26,178 bases of DNA from a virus, in IMG/VR virus record IMGVR_UViG_3300030107_004486, positions 11,763-37,940 of that record; one strand, given 5' to 3'. Position numbers and translations under genes: made by a program. This document shows, in pieces, positions 1,967-25,744 of this stretch; position 1 is the stretch's first letter; the number at the start of each line of letters is the position of its first letter. The notes below the pieces were generated by a model. It made no database searches. It saw only the letters and a program-made list of their open reading frames with translations, and was not told the origin of the DNA.

Positions 1967-2668
1967 ATGTGCTTTCCAGCAATAGCAGCGGCGTTACCTT
2001 CTTTATCAACAATAACAGCGTCGTTACCTTCTTTATCAGCAATAACAGCGGCCGCCCCGTCACTTGGTACAGTCTTTGCCGGTGCGGGGGCTTTGACAAG
2101 TGCATTTGGCGCAGTGCGGCAAAGCCAGTTTCAATCCGCTAACATGCAATATCAATCTCAGCTTGCAGCGCAAAACGCGCAGATTGCCGAGAACAATGCG
2201 GTTGTTGCGCAGCAAGCGGCAATAGCGGACGCGGATACTATCGACCGACAGCGGCGCATTGCGCTGGCGCAGCAGAGCGCGCAGCGTGCCGCGCAAGGGG
2301 TGGTGATAAATGAAGGGTCTACGCTGGATACTCTGGGCGACGCTGCGGCCGAATTGGAACTGGATCGCTTAAATCGTTTGTACGAAGGCGGAACGCGGGC
2401 GCGGGCGCAGCTTGCCCAAGCTGGACAAGACACGGCGGCAAGTCGTGGGTTGCTTGTGCAAGCAAGCCAAGCGCGTACCTCTGGAACTATTGGTGCGCTG
2501 ACTTCGCTCGCTAAAGGTGGTTATCAGATTTCGCGCAGTATGTCGCGGACTCCTAGCGGACTGCGTGGCTATGCAATCCCGTCTAGTGTTTTGGCTACAA
2601 TGCCCAAAGGCACATCCGGTCTGACAAGTCGGCAATACGCCGCAAGCTATCCAGCTAACGCGTTTTAG
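1967..2668 (+). CDS. Internal virion protein, T7 gp14-like
   Basis: This 233-aa protein is rich in Ala and Gln, with long helices (residues about 45-170: QYQSQLAAQNAQIAENNAV, ALAQQSAQRAAQGV, LGDAAAELELDRLNRLYEG). This is the usual look of the small internal core protein of T7-type podoviruses (virion core protein, gp14 family), ejected into the cell envelope at infection to begin the DNA channel. Its place directly after the tail nozzle gene and before two or three large helical proteins fits that order. The N-terminus has three consecutive 10-residue repeats (pattern xLPSLSxITA), the first two nearly identical at DNA level. The ribosome site is weak, and the start lies only 4 nt past the upstream stop, suggesting translational coupling. 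Confidence 0.7.
   Translation: MCFPAIAAALPSLSTITASLPSLSAITAAAPSLGTVFAGAGALTSAFGAVRQSQFQSANMQYQSQLAAQNAQIAENNAVVAQQAAIADADTIDRQRRIALAQQSAQRAAQGVVINEGSTLDTLGDAAAELELDRLNRLYEGGTRARAQLAQAGQDTAASRGLLVQASQARTSGTIGALTSLAKGGYQISRSMSRTPSGLRGYAIPSSVLATMPKGTSGLTSRQYAASYPANAF
1992..2050 (+). repeat. 30-bp tandem duplication inside the gp14-like gene
   Basis: The stretches 1992-2020 and 2022-2050 (core gttaccttctttatca) differ by one base (a/g). The period of 30 bp keeps the frame and duplicates a hydrophobic decapeptide. A third, diverged copy follows at the protein level (AAPSLGTVFA). Confidence 0.8.
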
Positions 2669-16007: not shown

Positions 16008-16085
16008 ATTTGCCGGCATTATTTGCCGGTATTATTTGCCGGTATTATTTGCCGGTATTATTTGCCGGTATTATCTGCCGGTAAT
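16008..16085. repeat. Six tandem 13-bp repeats (iteron-like)
   Basis: Units of 13 bp, consensus atttgccggtatt, start at 16008, 16021, 16034, 16047, 16060 and 16073. The four middle copies are identical; the first has gccggc and the last has atctgccggtaat. They span the 3' end of the winged-helix gene (its stop lies within the array) and the gap to the terminator. The unit has a CCGG palindromic centre. Length (13 bp is not a multiple of 3) and perfect spacing suggest protein-binding iterons or slippage expansion. Confidence 0.95.
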
Positions 16086-16816
16086 TCTTCCATCAACATA
16101 ACCTCATCGACGAGCGCATCAAACGCGTTTACGTCGACAAAATACCGGGTTAAATTGTAACCCTTCTCGCCAAAAACACGCCCAACGGCTTGCCGCAGAT
16201 ATACAAAAATACCCACCGCTCCCGGCGCGGTGGAGTTAAAAAGATTATCGGTATCGCTGACTAGCCCACGGGAAGGGTAATAACAATTCTTTCGTGCGTC
16301 ATCGGCAAGTTTGTCACGCTCCAACGATCCGATTTCCAGCGCAAACTGAAGTAGCTGTTGCATCGCCCGGATGCTGCCGAATTGTCTTGCCATCACTTCT
16401 TCTTCAGTGGTCGGGCGATCCTCAAGATAATAATTGCGCATTATCAGATGATGCAGACAAATGCGCTTGTGATCTGCAAACCACCAACGAAGCCCGAACT
16501 CCTTTTTCTGCGCTACCTCGAAAAGATTTAGCTTGGCTTCCAGATATACGCCCTGCCACTTGCGGAAGTCCTGCGCTTCTTCAATTTTTCCAGCTTGCCG
16601 TTCCGACCGTTTAGGATTCGCCGCCAACTGGTCGCCCTTTCTGCCACGGCCCCAGAACGCTTGCCAGTTCGGAACGAAATCCGGCCGATGTAATGATCGT
16701 TCGCGCAATGAATACGTTTGATATTTTTCACCGCCGGTCGGCGGGCAAAGCGCGTTTGGATCATCATGTTTTTCGTCCGCGCTTACCACTCTTAATATGT
16801 TTTTATTGTTAGTCAT
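16058..16816 (-). CDS. Predicted winged-helix DNA-binding protein downstream of integrase
   Basis: 252 aa when started at the ATG at 16816, which has a run of six G (SD) 8 nt upstream; an earlier ATG (16849) overlaps the integrase stop and is also possible. Residues about 113-185 (FADHKRICLHHLIMRNYYL, PTTEEEVMARQFGSIRAMQQ, LEIGSLERDKLADDARKNC) read like a MarR-type winged helix: helix-turn-helix, then 'G.LER...DDARK' as the wing. The N-terminal 100 residues are basic (RGRKGDQLAANPKRSERQ). I do not recognise the family by name. As the partner of int in the operon it may be an excision, copy-control or regulatory protein; the 13-bp repeats at its 3' end are possible binding sites. Confidence 0.6.
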   Translation of the reverse strand: MTNNKNILRVVSADEKHDDPNALCPPTGGEKYQTYSLRERSLHRPDFVPNWQAFWGRGRKGDQLAANPKRSERQAGKIEEAQDFRKWQGVYLEAKLNLFEVAQKKEFGLRWWFADHKRICLHHLIMRNYYLEDRPTTEEEVMARQFGSIRAMQQLLQFALEIGSLERDKLADDARKNCYYPSRGLVSDTDNLFNSTAPGAVGIFVYLRQAVGRVFGEKGYNLTRYFVDVNAFDALVDEVMLMEELPADNTGK

Positions 16817-16841
16817 CAGTTTATCCCCCCTGTTTCTAGTT

Positions 16842-18059
16842 TTACCCATTTTGCAAATCCTTTTCGGGAGTGTCCCAATCGGGGTCTGCAATCATTGCGC
16901 CAGCCATCGCTGTGACTTGCCGCTGGTCCCGGTCCCTGTCTTTAAAAAACTCCGCGTATTCCTTGTAAGTGAAGTCAATGGAGTGGTGGCCCATCCACTG
17001 CGTCACCTCGGCGTCTGACAGTTCTTTTGAGAAAATTATGGTCGATGCAAAGAAATGACGCAAATCGCGCCAGATCATTGTTTTAACCTCTGCTTTTTCG
17101 CATGCCGGTTTTAAACCGCGTTCACGCCAGTTGTCGCAGTTGCCGGGGGTTCCGATGCGCGATGGAAACACAAGGTTGTTTCTACGCATTTCGAGCGGCT
17201 GTGACATTTTCCAGTGCCGCAGCATATCGACGACGACGGGCACCAACGGAATTGTACGATCACCGTTGTAGGTTTTTACGTCGCCCTCGTCACCACCCCA
17301 CTGAATAGCCTTGTTCACGTCCACGTAACCGGGTTCGTTTTGGCTTTCGTTGGGAAAATGTATATCGGCCCAGGTCAAGGCCATTAACTCACCGCCACGC
17401 AAGCCGGTGTAGGCGGCAAACATAATTTGACGTTTATAGGTTAACGACGCGTGTTTAATTACATCTGCTATTTCTTTTGGCGAACAACGGCGCTTCTCCT
17501 TTTTTTTTGCGTTCTTCATAGATATCGTAATTTCCTGCGCCGGGGTTTCAACGATCCATCCGCGATGCAGCGCCCACATAAATAAAGTTTTTAATGTTAT
17601 GAAACAGCTTCGCTGGGTTTTTTTTGACTGTGCTTTTCGCGCTGCCGGACATTCGCCCGTATGAAGCTGGGTGCGCACTTCTTTCAGCATGGCAAACGTT
17701 ATTTTTTCAATGTGCATTTCACCGATGGGTACACCATCAATGATGCATGAATTTAGCTGCCTTATGTGGCGCTCCTTGTTGACGCGCTCACCCTTGCCAA
17801 CCTCTCCATGTTCCACCAGATAATCGACATGCTCCAGATACTTTTCTTTAACGCCGTCCATATTATCCGGACAGGTTGTATCCGGTTCTCGGCGGTTTTT
17901 TATATTAGTGATTAAACGTTCACGTTCCGCCACCGCCTCGGTTAACGTGCCTTCAAATGTGACGGTGCCAGCGTTTAAGCTCCGCAAATCCAGCCTGTAT
18001 TTTTGGCCTTTTTCCAGTTCCCAAACGCCCGGTGAGCTTTGATTTTTGTTACGTTTCAT
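16842..18059 (-). CDS. int: Tyrosine-family site-specific integrase
   Basis: 405 aa; ATG with SD agagga 5 nt upstream. Order: N-terminal arm-binding domain (1-60), SAM-like core-binding domain (about 65-180, LKTLFMWALHRGWIVETPAQ), catalytic domain (190-375). Active-site elements: R221 in YTGLRGGELMALTW, probable Lys at K262, RDLRHFFAS with R334, GH at 357-358, and nucleophile Y368 (GH-x9-Y spacing). The first histidine of the HxxR box is Arg (R331). It catalyses recombination between attP and a tRNA-fMet gene; the attP lies directly upstream (18234-18445). Its promoter contains a palindrome similar to the repressor operator. The gene overlaps or nearly abuts the winged-helix gene that follows. 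Confidence 0.93.
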   Translation of the reverse strand: MKRNKNQSSPGVWELEKGQKYRLDLRSLNAGTVTFEGTLTEAVAERERLITNIKNRREPDTTCPDNMDGVKEKYLEHVDYLVEHGEVGKGERVNKERHIRQLNSCIIDGVPIGEMHIEKITFAMLKEVRTQLHTGECPAARKAQSKKTQRSCFITLKTLFMWALHRGWIVETPAQEITISMKNAKKKEKRRCSPKEIADVIKHASLTYKRQIMFAAYTGLRGGELMALTWADIHFPNESQNEPGYVDVNKAIQWGGDEGDVKTYNGDRTIPLVPVVVDMLRHWKMSQPLEMRRNNLVFPSRIGTPGNCDNWRERGLKPACEKAEVKTMIWRDLRHFFASTIIFSKELSDAEVTQWMGHHSIDFTYKEYAEFFKDRDRDQRQVTAMAGAMIADPDWDTPEKDLQNG

Positions 18060-18282: not shown

Positions 18283-18445
18283 TTCAGACGACCTGAAAAA
18301 CCATTTAAAAACAGTAGTTTACCTTACCTGTCAAATGGTTGTACCATTTCTTTACCCCTGTCGTATACCCCTATTATACCCCTAGTGTACCTTTTTCTGC
18401 ACGCGAACTGCACGCGCAAAAATGAGTTTAAGGTACGTAACAAAT
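18283..18445. other. attP arm region with phased direct repeats
   Basis: No gene is seen here. It contains TTCAG-N5-CTGAA (18283-18297), AACCATTT (18299-18306) inverted as AAATGGTT (18334-18341), TATACCCCTA twice at 18364 and 18375 (with a variant TTTACCCCTG at 18351), and CTGCACGCG twice at 18397 and 18408. Both last pairs are spaced 11 bp, one helical turn, as expected for arm-type integrase or excisionase sites. Confidence 0.6.
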
Positions 18446-20321: not shown

Positions 20322-20356
20322 GCAGTACCCTTCCAGTGGTCGAATAGTGGTCACAG

Positions 20357-20385
20357 AATGTACTCAGAATACACTCACATAACAA
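20357..20385 (-). promoter_or_regulatory. Predicted cI promoter
   Basis: Minus strand -35 TTGTTA (20385-20380), 17-nt spacer, -10 TACATT (20362-20357), giving a start near 20350 and a leader of about 30 nt to the GTG at 20321. Confidence 0.5.
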
Positions 20386-21849: not shown

Positions 21850-22221
21850 ATGTCATCACGCACACGACTAACAAACAGGGAACGGTTTGACATTGAAAGT
21901 TGCATCGTCCGCAACGGCGATGAAACGGATACTGGCTGGCAGTACCACGAAGGAATGTCTGACGCTGCGATAGCCAAACAATTTAAAACCACAATGAAAA
22001 CGGTGTCGAACATTCGGAATAAAACGTTTGGCAAGTTGGCCGGGCGCGCGGAGCGCGTGACCAAAATAGACATCGTAAATGAGCGCATCGACGATTTGGA
22101 AAAAAGGCTTGCGGTATTGGAAAAAACTACCGGGCCTTCGGCCGCTTCGCCGCCGCCTATGCGACAGAGTTGGATAGACCGCTCTAGCGGAAATGGAATT
22201 TTAACAGAGGAGAGTTTGTAA
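21850..22221 (+). CDS. HTH protein of unknown role
   Basis: 123 aa from the ATG at 21850, chosen for the SD gagga upstream; the longer frame (from 21784) has none. Residues about 34-57 form a HTH (MSDAAIAKQFKTTMKTVSNIRNKTFG). A helical segment (VNERIDDLEKRLAVLEK, about 76-95) looks like a short coiled coil for dimerisation, and the C-terminus is Pro/Ser-rich. It may regulate the early operon or act in replication start; I know no family. It overlaps the next gene by 1 nt (TAATG). Confidence 0.6.
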   Translation: MSSRTRLTNRERFDIESCIVRNGDETDTGWQYHEGMSDAAIAKQFKTTMKTVSNIRNKTFGKLAGRAERVTKIDIVNERIDDLEKRLAVLEKTTGPSAASPPPMRQSWIDRSSGNGILTEESL

Positions 22222-22772
22222 TGCCACTTAACCTGGACACACCCGGCGATGGCGGCGGGCAATTTTACGACAAGCTGCGTTTCAACGCGCAAGGCGGCGT
22301 CTGGTACATGAAATCAGGCGATGACGAAACGCGGTTTAACGACGGTTTCCAAGCTGTCTTCGACATGGAAAACCTGCAAACGGGCTGGTCACGTTTCAAC
22401 GGATCGTTCCTTGATTTTATCGCTGACCCGTCACTCGAAACACCGGCACCGAAACCTGCGGAGGAAAGCGAAGAAGATCGCTGGAAGCGCAGCTTTAAGG
22501 TGCTGGCATTTTCCGACAAGGCATTTGGCGGCGTCGTTGAATTTACGCATCAGGCGAAAACCGTCACCGCTGCGTTCAACGATTTGTACTCACAGTACGA
22601 AGCGAAAAAGAAGAACGGCAAGCTGCCGGTCGTTGAAGTAAACGGCTCACCTAAAAAGGTGGGCGACTACTACGCGCCTGATTGGGCGGTAGCAAAGATG
22701 GCTGACCGGCCGGATGCTTTTAACGGTAGCGCACCAGCGCCAGCGGACGAGGCCGCTGATGCTGAGTTTTAA
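22221..22772 (+). CDS. Probable single-stranded DNA-binding protein
   Basis: 183 aa with SD gagag/ggagag near -8. The central part has alternating aromatic and basic strands (FRxx.. WKRSFKVLAFSDKAFGGVVEF, PVVEVNGSPKKVGDYYAPDW), followed by RPDAF. The C-terminus is an acidic tail ending in Phe (ADEAADAEF), like the tails of bacterial SSB and T7 gp2.5 that bind other replication proteins. Its place between a recombination exonuclease and primase-helicase fits. The OB fold is not proved by eye, so the name is an inference. Confidence 0.55.
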   Translation: MPLNLDTPGDGGGQFYDKLRFNAQGGVWYMKSGDDETRFNDGFQAVFDMENLQTGWSRFNGSFLDFIADPSLETPAPKPAEESEEDRWKRSFKVLAFSDKAFGGVVEFTHQAKTVTAAFNDLYSQYEAKKKNGKLPVVEVNGSPKKVGDYYAPDWAVAKMADRPDAFNGSAPAPADEAADAEF

Positions 22773-22785
22773 CAGATAACACTCG

Positions 22786-22880
22786 CGGCTGGGCGGGGCC
22801 GGGCGAGGCTAGGCGGGGCCGGGCAGGGCGCGGCGCGGCAGGGCACGGCGCGGCAAGGCAAGGCAAGGCAAGGCAAGGAA
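22786..22880 (+). repeat. 19-unit pentanucleotide repeat array (NGGCN)
   Basis: The gap after the SSB-like gene reads as 19 consecutive 5-bp blocks in exact register: 18 blocks fit NGGCN and the last is aggaa. The 3' end is the most uniform (aggca five times, 22856-22880 including aggaa), the 5' side is more degenerate. Some blocks repeat as a 20-bp higher unit (ggcggggccgggc at 22792 and 22812). G is strongly biased to the plus strand. Confidence 0.95.
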
Positions 22881-22957
22881 CTGGGCTTTAGAAACGTTAA
22901 TCAAAATCAATAGCACCAGAAAAGAACATGGAACAACTGACGGAGGACAGAGGACAA

Positions 22958-23578
22958 ATGACGATAGCAACATTAAGCGACACGAGACTTGAACTAATCC
23001 AGCGACACGTCCGCATCGACGGCGTGTCACCCATTATGTTCGACCGCTATGCGGGAGACAAAGATACGAGGCTTGAATGGCATCAGAAAATTTACGCCAA
23101 ACCCGGAACATCGACGCTTTCTATTCCGACACTAAACATCGTTTCGTTCTTTACCGCTCACAACACGAACTCGGCACCGAAGCGGCTGCGCGATGTGAGG
23201 AAGTACAAAGCAATCGCAAATTCAATTCTGTCGTTCACGACGATAACAGCGATGAACGGTGATGCGGAATACATACCCTTTTTACGTGACGGTAAAGAAA
23301 TACAGGTCGGCACATTTGCAGACGACCATGACCCGGTGTCCGGTTTGAAACTGCATCAGGCAGTAGCGCGGTTGGAGAAGGGCATTCCTAATGAAAAAGA
23401 ACGGGCGTTGCTGCCGCTTCCTTGGTCGTTGGAATTTATGCTGACGATATACCCGAATAAGGAAATCAAGGAACAGGAGATCAAAAACCTGCTGGCCGAA
23501 GGCGGGATGGCAATCGGGCTTGGCACGTTTCGCGGCGTGTTTGGAAAATTTCAAGTTGCAAAATGGGCCGACGCTTGA
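22958..23578 (+). CDS. Unknown early protein with glycine-rich C-terminal loop (RAMP-like?)
   Basis: 206 aa from the ATG at 22958, preferred to 22928 because agaggac precedes it by about 9 nt. The N-terminal strand has VDG-type GVSPIMFDRYAGD (residues 22-34). A tail WSLEFMLTIYPNKEI, then an AEGG-M-A-I-G-L-G-TFRGVFGKFQV segment (residues about 180-200). The G-x-G-xFRGxFGxF pattern after an extended strand resembles glycine-rich loops of RAMP/ferredoxin-like RNA- or DNA-binding proteins. That similarity is only a motif impression. It sits between the pentamer array and the primase-helicase, and is closed by an intrinsic terminator. I do not assign a function. Confidence 0.6.
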   Translation: MTIATLSDTRLELIQRHVRIDGVSPIMFDRYAGDKDTRLEWHQKIYAKPGTSTLSIPTLNIVSFFTAHNTNSAPKRLRDVRKYKAIANSILSFTTITAMNGDAEYIPFLRDGKEIQVGTFADDHDPVSGLKLHQAVARLEKGIPNEKERALLPLPWSLEFMLTIYPNKEIKEQEIKNLLAEGGMAIGLGTFRGVFGKFQVAKWADA

Positions 23579-23582
23579 TGCG

Positions 23583-23617
23583 CGGCGGGGGTGTTGCCCT
23601 TCACCCCTGCCGTTTTT
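23583..23617 (+). terminator. Intrinsic terminator after the unknown gene
   Basis: An 11-bp stem CGGCGGGGGTG / CACCCCTGCCG (23583-23593 with 23602-23612, one G-T pair), 8-nt loop ttgccctt, then TTTTT (23613-23617). The next gene starts only 12 nt later, so it separates but does not fully isolate the primase-helicase genes. Confidence 0.85.
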
Positions 23618-23628
23618 CCGAGGATTAA

Positions 23629-23793
23629 ATGAAGCAAGAAATCTGCACGGTTTGCGACGGTGACGTTGACGAAGGCATTACCGGCTTTTTCGGCATGATC
23701 CCTGTCGCCTTTTGCCCGACCTGTCTGGTTGGCGTGCGCGACCTTGCGGAAAGCATGTGCCTACGCTGTCAAGAAGATTACGATGATGACTGA
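23629..23793 (+). CDS. 54-aa triple-CxxC zinc-ribbon protein
   Basis: Not among the longer reading frames, but well supported: ATG with SD gagg 7 nt upstream, and a stop at 23793 overlapping the start of the primase-helicase gene (ATGATGACTGA). It has CTVC (C6, C9), CPTC (C29, C32) and CLRC (C44, C47): three CxxC knuckles, enough for one or two zinc ions, with a DDD tail. It is a likely DNA- or protein-binding zinc ribbon acting with the primase-helicase. Family unknown. Confidence 0.7.
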   Translation: MKQEICTVCDGDVDEGITGFFGMIPVAFCPTCLVGVRDLAESMCLRCQEDYDDD

Positions 23794-25744
23794 ACGCTAC
23801 ACACAATGGGCACCCGTGCTTCTCAGCCTCGGCTACGATCCGACGCCGGTTCATGGCAAGGCACCTATATTAAAGGGGTGGAGTGACCGGCCGGAATCGG
23901 CAAAGGATTTTGCAGCACACGGCGACGCAAACATCGGCGTGCTGTGCGGCGGTGAACACAACCTGATTGCCATTGATGTTGATGTGGTCAATCCGTTTGC
24001 AGCAAACGCTGTGCGCACCCTGATTGATGAAACGCTGGGGTTTGCGCCGGAGCGCGTCGGCAAGCCGCCAAAGTTCCTGATGGTCTTCCGCTGCACCGAA
24101 GCAATCAAGAAACGCAAGACCGGCACCTATGAAATAGAAAGCACCGATTGCCAGGTGGAAGTGCTGGCAGAAGGGCAACAGTTCGTCGCCAGCGGTATTC
24201 ACCCGGAGACAAAGGACAACTACGTGTGGCCGGATAACAACCTTCTCGATTACGCCATTGACGATTTAACGCTGGTGTCGACGCAACAGGTTGACGACTT
24301 CCTGCATCAGGCGGCAATCGCCATTTCACAATACGGACCATTAAAAGGCAGAATTACGCAACGCACGACACAGCCCATCACCGGGCTGAACCTGAAAGAG
24401 CTTGACGGCGAGATGGCTGAAATCGAAACCGCACTCGCCTTCCTGCCCAATGATGACGAACATTATGACGACTGGATTCACACTTTGCATGCCATCAAGG
24501 GGGCAGTGGGCGAGGCTGGTTACGATCTGGCGCATCGCTGGTCGAAACGATCCGACAAGTACGACGCAGCTGAAACAGATCGCGCATGGGACAGTATAAA
24601 AAATGTAAAGCACATCGGTGCCGGGTCCATTTACCACTGGGCAAGTGAACACGGTTTTAACCTGCGCGAAATGCGTGAGCCGGATTTTATCGGGCCTGAA
24701 GATATAAAGGACAAGCAACCCTCGCCGCTGCTGCGGGCCTCGGACATCCGTGGGCCAATAGCAAATCGCGAGTGGTTGCTTGACCAGTGGTTTCCAGCAA
24801 AGGCAGTCAGCGCCATGTTTGGGCAGGGTGGCGTCGGCAAGACGCTGCTGGTGCATCAGCTTGCAAACTGCGTTGCAACGGGCAGTCCATTTCTCGGCAT
24901 GGAAACAAAACAAATGCCGGTGCTGATGGTGCTGTGCGAGGACGACACAGATGAAATAAGCCGTCGCCAGTTGGCCATTAACGAATGGATGGGCGTGAAC
25001 GAGATCACGGGCAGCGCACCGGACAACCTTTTTATCTGGCCGCGGGTGGGCGAGGACAACATCCTTGTCACATGGCCATCCCAGGGCGAGGACAAGGCGG
25101 GCGAATTTTACGGCCAGCTATGTGAACAGGTGCAATTCGTCATCGATACGACAGACTCAGACGAGTTATTGCTGGTGCTGGACACGGCGGCCGACGTGTT
25201 TGGTGGCAATGAGAACATAAGGCGTGAGGTCAACACCTTTATAAAGACGTATTGCGGGTCATTTTGCACTAACTACGACGCCACGGTGCTGATGCTGGCG
25301 CACCCGTCGCTGTCCGGACTGTCATCGGGCAGCGGTATGTCGGGCAGCACGGCATGGGAGAATAGTGTTAGGGCGCGCGCCTATTTTTCCCGCAGCGACG
25401 ATGCAGACGATGTGCGTATCCTGTCGCGGAAGAAATCAAACTATTCAGCAAGCGGTGACAGTACCGATATTACGGTGATCTGGGACGAGTATGTTTACCA
25501 GTTGCCACAGTCGCAATCGCAGATGGATCGCATCGAAAACCGGGCGCTGAAAAACAAAATTATACAGGCTGTAGACGCGGCTGCGAGAGAGGGAAAACCA
25601 TACCAGAAAAAGACCGGCAGAAAGATTTTAGAAGCACTTCCGGCAGCACTTGGAGAGCGTCGAAAGCGCGTATCAAATGCCATTTCAGAATTGGAAATTG
25701 CGGGTGAAATAGTGTTCAAACCGAGGGTTGGCTACCGTGCATGA
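23783..25744 (+). CDS. PrimPol-RepA primase-helicase fusion
   Basis: 653 aa from the first of two adjacent ATGs (23783 or 23786), overlapping the zinc-ribbon gene by 11 nt. Residues 5-150 are a bifunctional primase-polymerase (prim-pol) domain: GYDPTPVHGKAPILKGW, IGVLCGG, IAIDVDV (metal acids D65, D67), EVLAEGQQFVASGIHP. About 215-305 is a PriCT_2-type linker (LAFLPNDDEHYDDWIHTLHA, IYHWASEHG). From about 335 there is a RepA/AAA_25 ATPase: Walker A GQGGVGKT (347-354), Walker B LLLVLD (D467), sensor region MLAHPSLSG...SGSTAWENS. The C-terminal 90 residues look like a winged helix. It would prime and unwind DNA at the phage origin; no separate DNA polymerase is seen in the window, so it or the host copies DNA. 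Confidence 0.85.
   Translation: MMTERYTQWAPVLLSLGYDPTPVHGKAPILKGWSDRPESAKDFAAHGDANIGVLCGGEHNLIAIDVDVVNPFAANAVRTLIDETLGFAPERVGKPPKFLMVFRCTEAIKKRKTGTYEIESTDCQVEVLAEGQQFVASGIHPETKDNYVWPDNNLLDYAIDDLTLVSTQQVDDFLHQAAIAISQYGPLKGRITQRTTQPITGLNLKELDGEMAEIETALAFLPNDDEHYDDWIHTLHAIKGAVGEAGYDLAHRWSKRSDKYDAAETDRAWDSIKNVKHIGAGSIYHWASEHGFNLREMREPDFIGPEDIKDKQPSPLLRASDIRGPIANREWLLDQWFPAKAVSAMFGQGGVGKTLLVHQLANCVATGSPFLGMETKQMPVLMVLCEDDTDEISRRQLAINEWMGVNEITGSAPDNLFIWPRVGEDNILVTWPSQGEDKAGEFYGQLCEQVQFVIDTTDSDELLLVLDTAADVFGGNENIRREVNTFIKTYCGSFCTNYDATVLMLAHPSLSGLSSGSGMSGSTAWENSVRARAYFSRSDDADDVRILSRKKSNYSASGDSTDITVIWDEYVYQLPQSQSQMDRIENRALKNKIIQAVDAAAREGKPYQKKTGRKILEALPAALGERRKRVSNAISELEIAGEIVFKPRVGYRA

What the first reader, a model, noticed from the sequence alone, without database searches (positions are those of the whole stretch)
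22786..22880. Pentanucleotide NGGCN array between SSB-like and unknown genes
Nineteen 5-bp blocks in perfect register, graded from degenerate to uniform, in a phage genome otherwise without simple repeats. The period does not fit codons, and the G-rich strand is the plus (early-mRNA) strand. It could be an origin element, a phase-variable spacer controlling translation of the gene at 22958, an RNA structure with G-tracts, or ongoing slippage (the uniform 3' end looks young).
Basis: seen in the sequence. Interest (0 to 1): 0.62.

Follow-up and report, generated by a model that had tools for sequence, protein, structure and literature searches.

The report
Phage guide-RNA array beside RAMP gene
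The odd 5-letter repeat is most likely the guide RNA of a VIPR system, a recently described CRISPR-like weapon that phages use against rival phages, because the gene right after it encodes a CRISPR-Cas7-type (RAMP) protein and the same pair occurs in many unrelated phages.

Summary
The array is real: 18 perfect NNGGC units (22785-22874) plus a 19th, AAGGA; shuffles give none. It is not an origin, slippage junk or a spacer. In 83 of them a relative of the gene downstream of the window's array lies within 861 bp (median 86 bp), and 81 of those pairs are on the same strand. The window protein (206 aa, start 22958) is modelled with good confidence as a CRISPR RAMP (Csm3/Cas7; Z 11), with a glycine-rich loop. 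This matches the VIPR systems reported in 2026 (PMC13142463): a Vipr RAMP plus vrRNAs of alternating GGY/NN, where the NN pairs, read with one skipped base, specify a DNA target. The profile also finds the RAMP-like gene of phage SUSP1, which lies between GGY/NN arrays. In the window, array and gene form one cassette between the ssb-like gene and its terminator; relatives without it keep the terminator directly after that gene. One guide, no recognisable accessory gene; I found no convincing target. Verdict: a new member of a just-described kind, in a Vipr clade distant from SUSP1.

The parts
22785..22854 (+). Variable part of the repeat tract, 14 NNGGC units (NN = GC TG GG CG GA TA GG CG AG GC GC AG AC GC): putative vrRNA guide
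   Evidence: NN varies freely across relatives while GGC is fixed
22855..22879 (+). Uniform 3' end of the tract, AAGGC x4 + AAGGA; related arrays of this clade also end in AAGG, so it may be a clade-specific constant 3' part, lengthened here by slippage
22880..22921 (+). Putative 3' tail: weak hairpin CTGGGCT (22881-22887) with AGCACCAG (22912-22919) and an A-rich loop
   Evidence: folding only, -7.3 kcal/mol; not conserved in sequence, weak
22958..23578 (+). vipr: 206-aa RAMP (Csm3/Cas7-like) protein with glycine-rich loop GGMAIGLGTFRGVFGKF; in-frame ATG at 22928 is a less likely start
23583..23617 (+). Intrinsic terminator (CGGCGGGGGTG / CACCCCTGCCG + T5); the same terminator directly follows the ssb-like gene in relatives L011/L012 that lack the cassette
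22221..22772 (+). Upstream ssb-like gene (183 aa, no family match); flank of the cassette, not part of it
23729..25744 (+). Prim-Pol / PriCT-2 / AAA_25 primase-helicase; flank of the cassette

Best explanation
The array is the guide part of a vrRNA of a VIPR (Viral Interference Programmable Repeat) system and the gene after it is vipr. Likely working: the plus-strand transcript of the ssb-like/array/vipr segment supplies a vrRNA. Vipr RAMP subunits assemble along it, one per 5-nt unit, holding each GGC and exposing each NN. The NN pairs then read double-stranded DNA as NNxNNx... (one skipped base) and the complex silences a gene of a competing phage or satellite. Shown here: the array, its association with a RAMP gene across phages, the predicted RAMP fold, relationship to the SUSP1 protein, and that array plus gene form one gain/loss cassette. 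Inferred from the published system: transcription, complex formation, the skip rule, silencing, and the rival-phage role. The target of this guide is unknown.
For: Every one of nine relatives of the downstream protein found by protein search has GGC/NN arrays, some imperfect, just upstream. Of 120 viral loci found by DNA pattern alone (scan stopped at its limit), 83 carry the protein; 81 of 83 on the same strand, all within 861 bp, median 86 bp. NN entropy 3.6-3.9 of 4 bits per unit while GGC is fixed by the search. AlphaFold2 model pLDDT 87.8, pTM 0.84; all listed PDB matches are CRISPR RAMP complexes (Csm, Cmr, type VII, Cas7-11), best Z 11.0 over 165 residues. Invariant G-loop residues. The family profile hits SUSP1 ALH47069 (E 2.5e-46 with the broad profile; 3.2e-7 with the narrower A1 profile), which has GGY/NN arrays upstream and downstream as PMC13142463 describes for SUSP1. 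SUSP1 nests inside the tree. Empty-site comparison with L011/L012.
Against: No target found: no match with up to 3 mismatches in the window, no exact match to 9-11 unit stretches in viral contigs beyond two partial, chance-like ones, none to 10 units in genome contigs. My own test of the skip rule on the loci in hand gave no signal. No accessory (vap) gene conserved across the clade. The 3' tail is weak and unlike the relatives' tails. The array has 18-19 units, above the 9-16 the paper reports. No separate promoter was found for the array. 37 of the 120 pattern loci have no vipr hit in the fetched DNA.
Confidence: 0.9

Rival explanations
1. The array is mainly a cis-acting leader: the RAMP protein binds GGC units in its own mRNA and represses its translation, with no DNA target.
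For: In the window and nine relatives an array lies directly upstream of the gene, in several ending about 20 nt before the ATG. No target was found.
Against: Many relatives have arrays downstream of the gene, or several arrays separated by hairpins, which a leader would not need. NN letters are close to random. Autoregulation could coexist with guiding.
Confidence: 0.06
2. The array is a replication-origin element (iterons or strand-opening repeats) for the Prim-Pol helicase downstream.
For: It lies between an ssb-like gene and a primase-helicase gene.
Against: Near relatives of this phage have ssb-like gene, terminator and primase directly adjacent, without array or RAMP gene. Elsewhere the array travels with the RAMP gene, not with the primase.
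Confidence: 0.02
3. A simple-sequence slippage product or phase-variable spacer.
For: Uniform AAGGC run at the 3' end; copy-number difference of GAGGC between two modules of L009.
Against: NN letters differ between units and between phages while GGC is kept; association with one gene family.
Confidence: 0.02

Closest known systems
VIPR systems (Vipr + vrRNA), PMC13142463 / doi 10.64898/2026.04.26.720920; Escherichia phage SUSP1 and Pseudomonas fulva prophage (type II)
   Same: Phage-encoded small RAMP protein; adjacent tandem pentanucleotide array with fixed GG[C/T] and free NN; detectable homology to the SUSP1 protein; profile from this family retrieves SUSP1
   Different: Distant clade from SUSP1 in the tree; a single guide of 18-19 units, GGC only (SUSP1 mainly GGT); no identified vap; uniform AAGGC 3' end; weak tail hairpin; target unknown
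CRISPR-Cas class 1 effectors (Cas7/Csm3)
   Same: RAMP fold and G-loop; presumed assembly of repeated subunits along a guide RNA
   Different: No CRISPR array or other cas gene recognised at the locus; 5-nt units with a discontinuous code instead of a contiguous spacer
TRAP, trp RNA-binding attenuation protein (from general knowledge)
   Same: Protein binding a run of triplets with 2-nt spacers in RNA
   Different: TRAP sites are about 11 G/UAG triplets in a leader; the protein fold here is RAMP and arrays occur on either side of the gene

Membership tests
VIPR | RAMP-fold protein (RRM core, glycine-rich loop) | tested here: met
   AlphaFold2 pLDDT 87.8; Csm3/Cas7 matches, Z up to 11.0; invariant G183, G187, G189, R192, G196
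VIPR | Homology to a characterised Vipr (SUSP1) | tested here: met
   A1 profile vs SUSP1 ALH47069 E 3.2e-7 with Z set to 20000; blastp 36% over 45 aa; nests in tree. That ALH47069 is the paper's Vipr is inferred from the flanking arrays
VIPR | Tandem GGY/NN repeat tract next to the gene, same strand | tested here: met
   18 units at 22785-22874; 81/83 same strand in the wider set
VIPR | NN hypervariable while GGY is conserved | tested here: met
   Entropy 3.6-3.9 of 4 bits per unit; different NN in the relatives. GGC is fixed by the search pattern, but relatives found by protein search also show it
VIPR | Invariable structured 3' tail after the repeats | tested here: inconclusive
   Weak hairpin in the window, -7.3 kcal/mol; stronger hairpins in relatives; no covariation test made
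VIPR | Target matching NN with a 1-nt skip, in a competing element | tested here: inconclusive
   No convincing target; own test of the skip rule had no power
VIPR | Accessory vap gene (typical) | tested here: inconclusive
   No conserved neighbour across 11 clade loci; no vap models were available
VIPR | vrRNA expressed and bound by Vipr | not testable with these tools
   Needs RNA sequencing and pull-down
CRISPR-Cas | CRISPR array and cas genes at the locus | tested here: not met
   Repeat scans show no CRISPR-like array in the window; no cas family among the proteins scanned here (PADLOC on three proteins)

The most novel reading that the evidence does not exclude
In this clade the fixed 3' AAGGC units take over part of the role of the structured vrRNA tail, so the guide is anchored by repeat units that can grow and shrink by slippage, and the single array doubles as the vipr mRNA leader, so that one RNA is both guide and self-regulating switch.
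Probability: 0.15. Interest if true: 0.55.

Novelty: new member of a known kind. Interest (0 to 1): 0.45.

Why it matters
VIPR was described only in 2026 and is proposed as an ancestor-like relative of CRISPR. This locus was reached from raw sequence by its repeat alone, and the blind pattern scan then recovered the RAMP partner in 83 of 120 contigs, which independently supports the repeat-RAMP link. It adds a minimal one-guide cassette with a clean empty-site comparison, in a clade distant from the tested type II systems, and gives a guide of 14 letter pairs whose target can be predicted once host and rival phages are known.

Tried and rejected
Target search: window with 3 mismatches, viral contigs with units 1-11, 4-14, 1-9 and 6-14, genome contigs with units 3-12, whole phage record: nothing; the two 9-unit hits (L142, L143) do not extend to the neighbouring units and look like chance. 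A search of 399 genomes of one order with 3 mismatches gave one site (L144); it lies inside a chromosomal gene that looks like an ABC-transporter substrate-binding protein, out of the wobble register, so I treat it as chance. A search of the Candidimonas genome with one of its own prophage's guides found nothing. Skip-rule tests on the fetched loci: no signal. Host: no match in named phages by DNA or by Vipr protein, none in plasmids; ssb-like protein not found in 399 genomes; neisserial uptake sequences not enriched. A first profile was contaminated by peptides translated from arrays; it was rebuilt with arrays masked. One structure job left unused.

Full report
Observation. The plus strand at 22785-22874 reads as 18 uninterrupted NNGGC units, followed by AAGGA. 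A six-unit pattern occurs 13 times there and never in 100 dinucleotide-preserving shuffles.

Context. The window is part of a 37.9 kb virus record with an integrase, an S24-type repressor and podovirus-like structural genes. The array lies between an ssb-like gene (22221-22772, no family match) and a 206-aa gene (22958-23578), followed by an intrinsic terminator (23583-23617) and a Prim-Pol primase-helicase. In L011 and L012, whose ssb-like protein is 84% identical, the ssb-like gene is followed directly by the matching terminator and then the primase. Array plus gene therefore behave as one cassette gained or lost between the ssb-like gene and its terminator.

Association. Nine viral relatives of the 206-aa protein (67-72% identity) all carry GGC/NN arrays, some imperfect, immediately upstream, with different NN letters, often several arrays separated by hairpin elements. 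A profile of the 206-aa protein, built with arrays masked so that array-encoded peptides could not enter, found a relative in 94 of 137 sequences held (L001 and the window are the same place). Among the 120 pattern loci, 83 carry it, 81 on the same strand as the nearest array, median distance 86 bp, maximum 861 bp; the nearest array is upstream in 22 and downstream in 61. The dinucleotides are nearly random (3.6-3.9 of 4 bits). The 37 loci without a hit may be truncated, carry diverged proteins, or be coincidental repeats; I did not resolve this.

Protein. The AlphaFold2 model (pLDDT 87.8, pTM 0.84) matches CRISPR RAMP proteins: every listed Foldseek hit is a Csm, Cmr, type VII or other Cas7-type structure, and the structural realignment gives Z 11.0, rmsd 3.6, 165 residues aligned with chain E of the Cas10-Csm complex 8do6. 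Sequence identity is about 10%. A glycine-rich loop near the C terminus (GGMAIGLGTFRGVFGKF) is conserved across 18 relatives. No Pfam model matches the window protein, and one PHROG of unknown function matches its C-terminal part.

Identification. PMC13142463 (2026 preprint) describes VIPR: a phage-encoded RAMP protein, Vipr, with vrRNAs of 9-16 YNNGG repeats, in which GGY is fixed and NN specifies the DNA target with one skipped base between pairs; reported effects are transcriptional silencing and conflict with other phages. Its model phage SUSP1 is in the phage collection. The family profile finds SUSP1 ALH47069, flanked by GGY/NN arrays, one upstream and more degenerate ones downstream. 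A narrower profile (A1) gives E 3.2e-7. SUSP1 nests within the family tree, in a different part from the window, so the window system is probably not of the SUSP1 type; its type could not be assigned because the supplement was not available. The paper came up in a search for pentanucleotide repeats, phages and Cas7; before that, the RAMP idea rested only on my recognition of the C-terminal motif (note).

Mechanism. By analogy with the published system, the array is transcribed, Vipr subunits line up on it, and NN pairs read a target of the form GCxTGxGGxCGxGAxTAxGGxCGxAGxGCxGCxAGxACxGC, possibly extended by AAx units. Transcription, assembly and silencing are inferred, not shown. No promoter-like site was found directly before the array, so it is probably carried on the transcript of the upstream gene and processed, which is also inference. 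Searches for the target in the window, the phage record, viral contigs, genome contigs and one bacterial order gave nothing convincing, and a test of the skip rule on the sequences in hand had no power.

3' end. Most arrays of the window's closest relatives end in AAGG, whatever their other letters, whereas in the wider set the last unit is AA in 43 of 205 arrays. The window has five such units in a row. In L009 two modules with the same tail differ by two GAGGC units at this end, two single-letter NN changes, and an extra 5' unit, which fits slippage. I read the uniform end as a clade-specific constant part that can expand, not as evidence of a young array. The predicted hairpin after it is weak, and the array RNA itself folds somewhat better than shuffles (z -2.4).

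Judgement. The locus is a VIPR-like cassette, with high confidence in the family assignment and no knowledge of its target. It is a new member of a known kind; the novelty lies in the clade, the single-guide layout and the 3' end.

Noticed in passing
window 16008-16083: Tandem array of a 13-bp unit (ATTTGCCGGTATT, 5.8 copies, 96% matches) next to and overlapping the end of the ORF at 16058-16891 (-); not studied.
   Followed up: no
window 1980-2052: 30-bp direct repeat (2.4 copies) inside the ORF 1967-2668; probably a protein repeat.
   Followed up: no
window 18363-18391 and 20354-20377: Short 11-bp repeats (GTATACCCCTA; CAGAATACACT); the second lies at the divergent repressor/Cro-like start and could be an operator. 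Not tested.
   Followed up: no
L017, L021, L025, L031 and 33 further pattern loci (list): 37 of 120 viral loci with NNGGC arrays have no Vipr hit in the fetched DNA; some arrays lie at contig edges, others may go with diverged Vipr types or be orphan guides.
   Followed up: no
L009 4667-4978: Two nearly identical array-plus-tail modules that differ by two GAGGC units and single-letter NN changes: a snapshot of how guides duplicate and change.
   Followed up: partly
L139 9794-10699 (Candidimonas nitroreducens; flanking sequence like L007): Vipr with two arrays upstream and a degenerate one downstream, in a sequenced bacterial genome; a possible laboratory model.
   Followed up: partly
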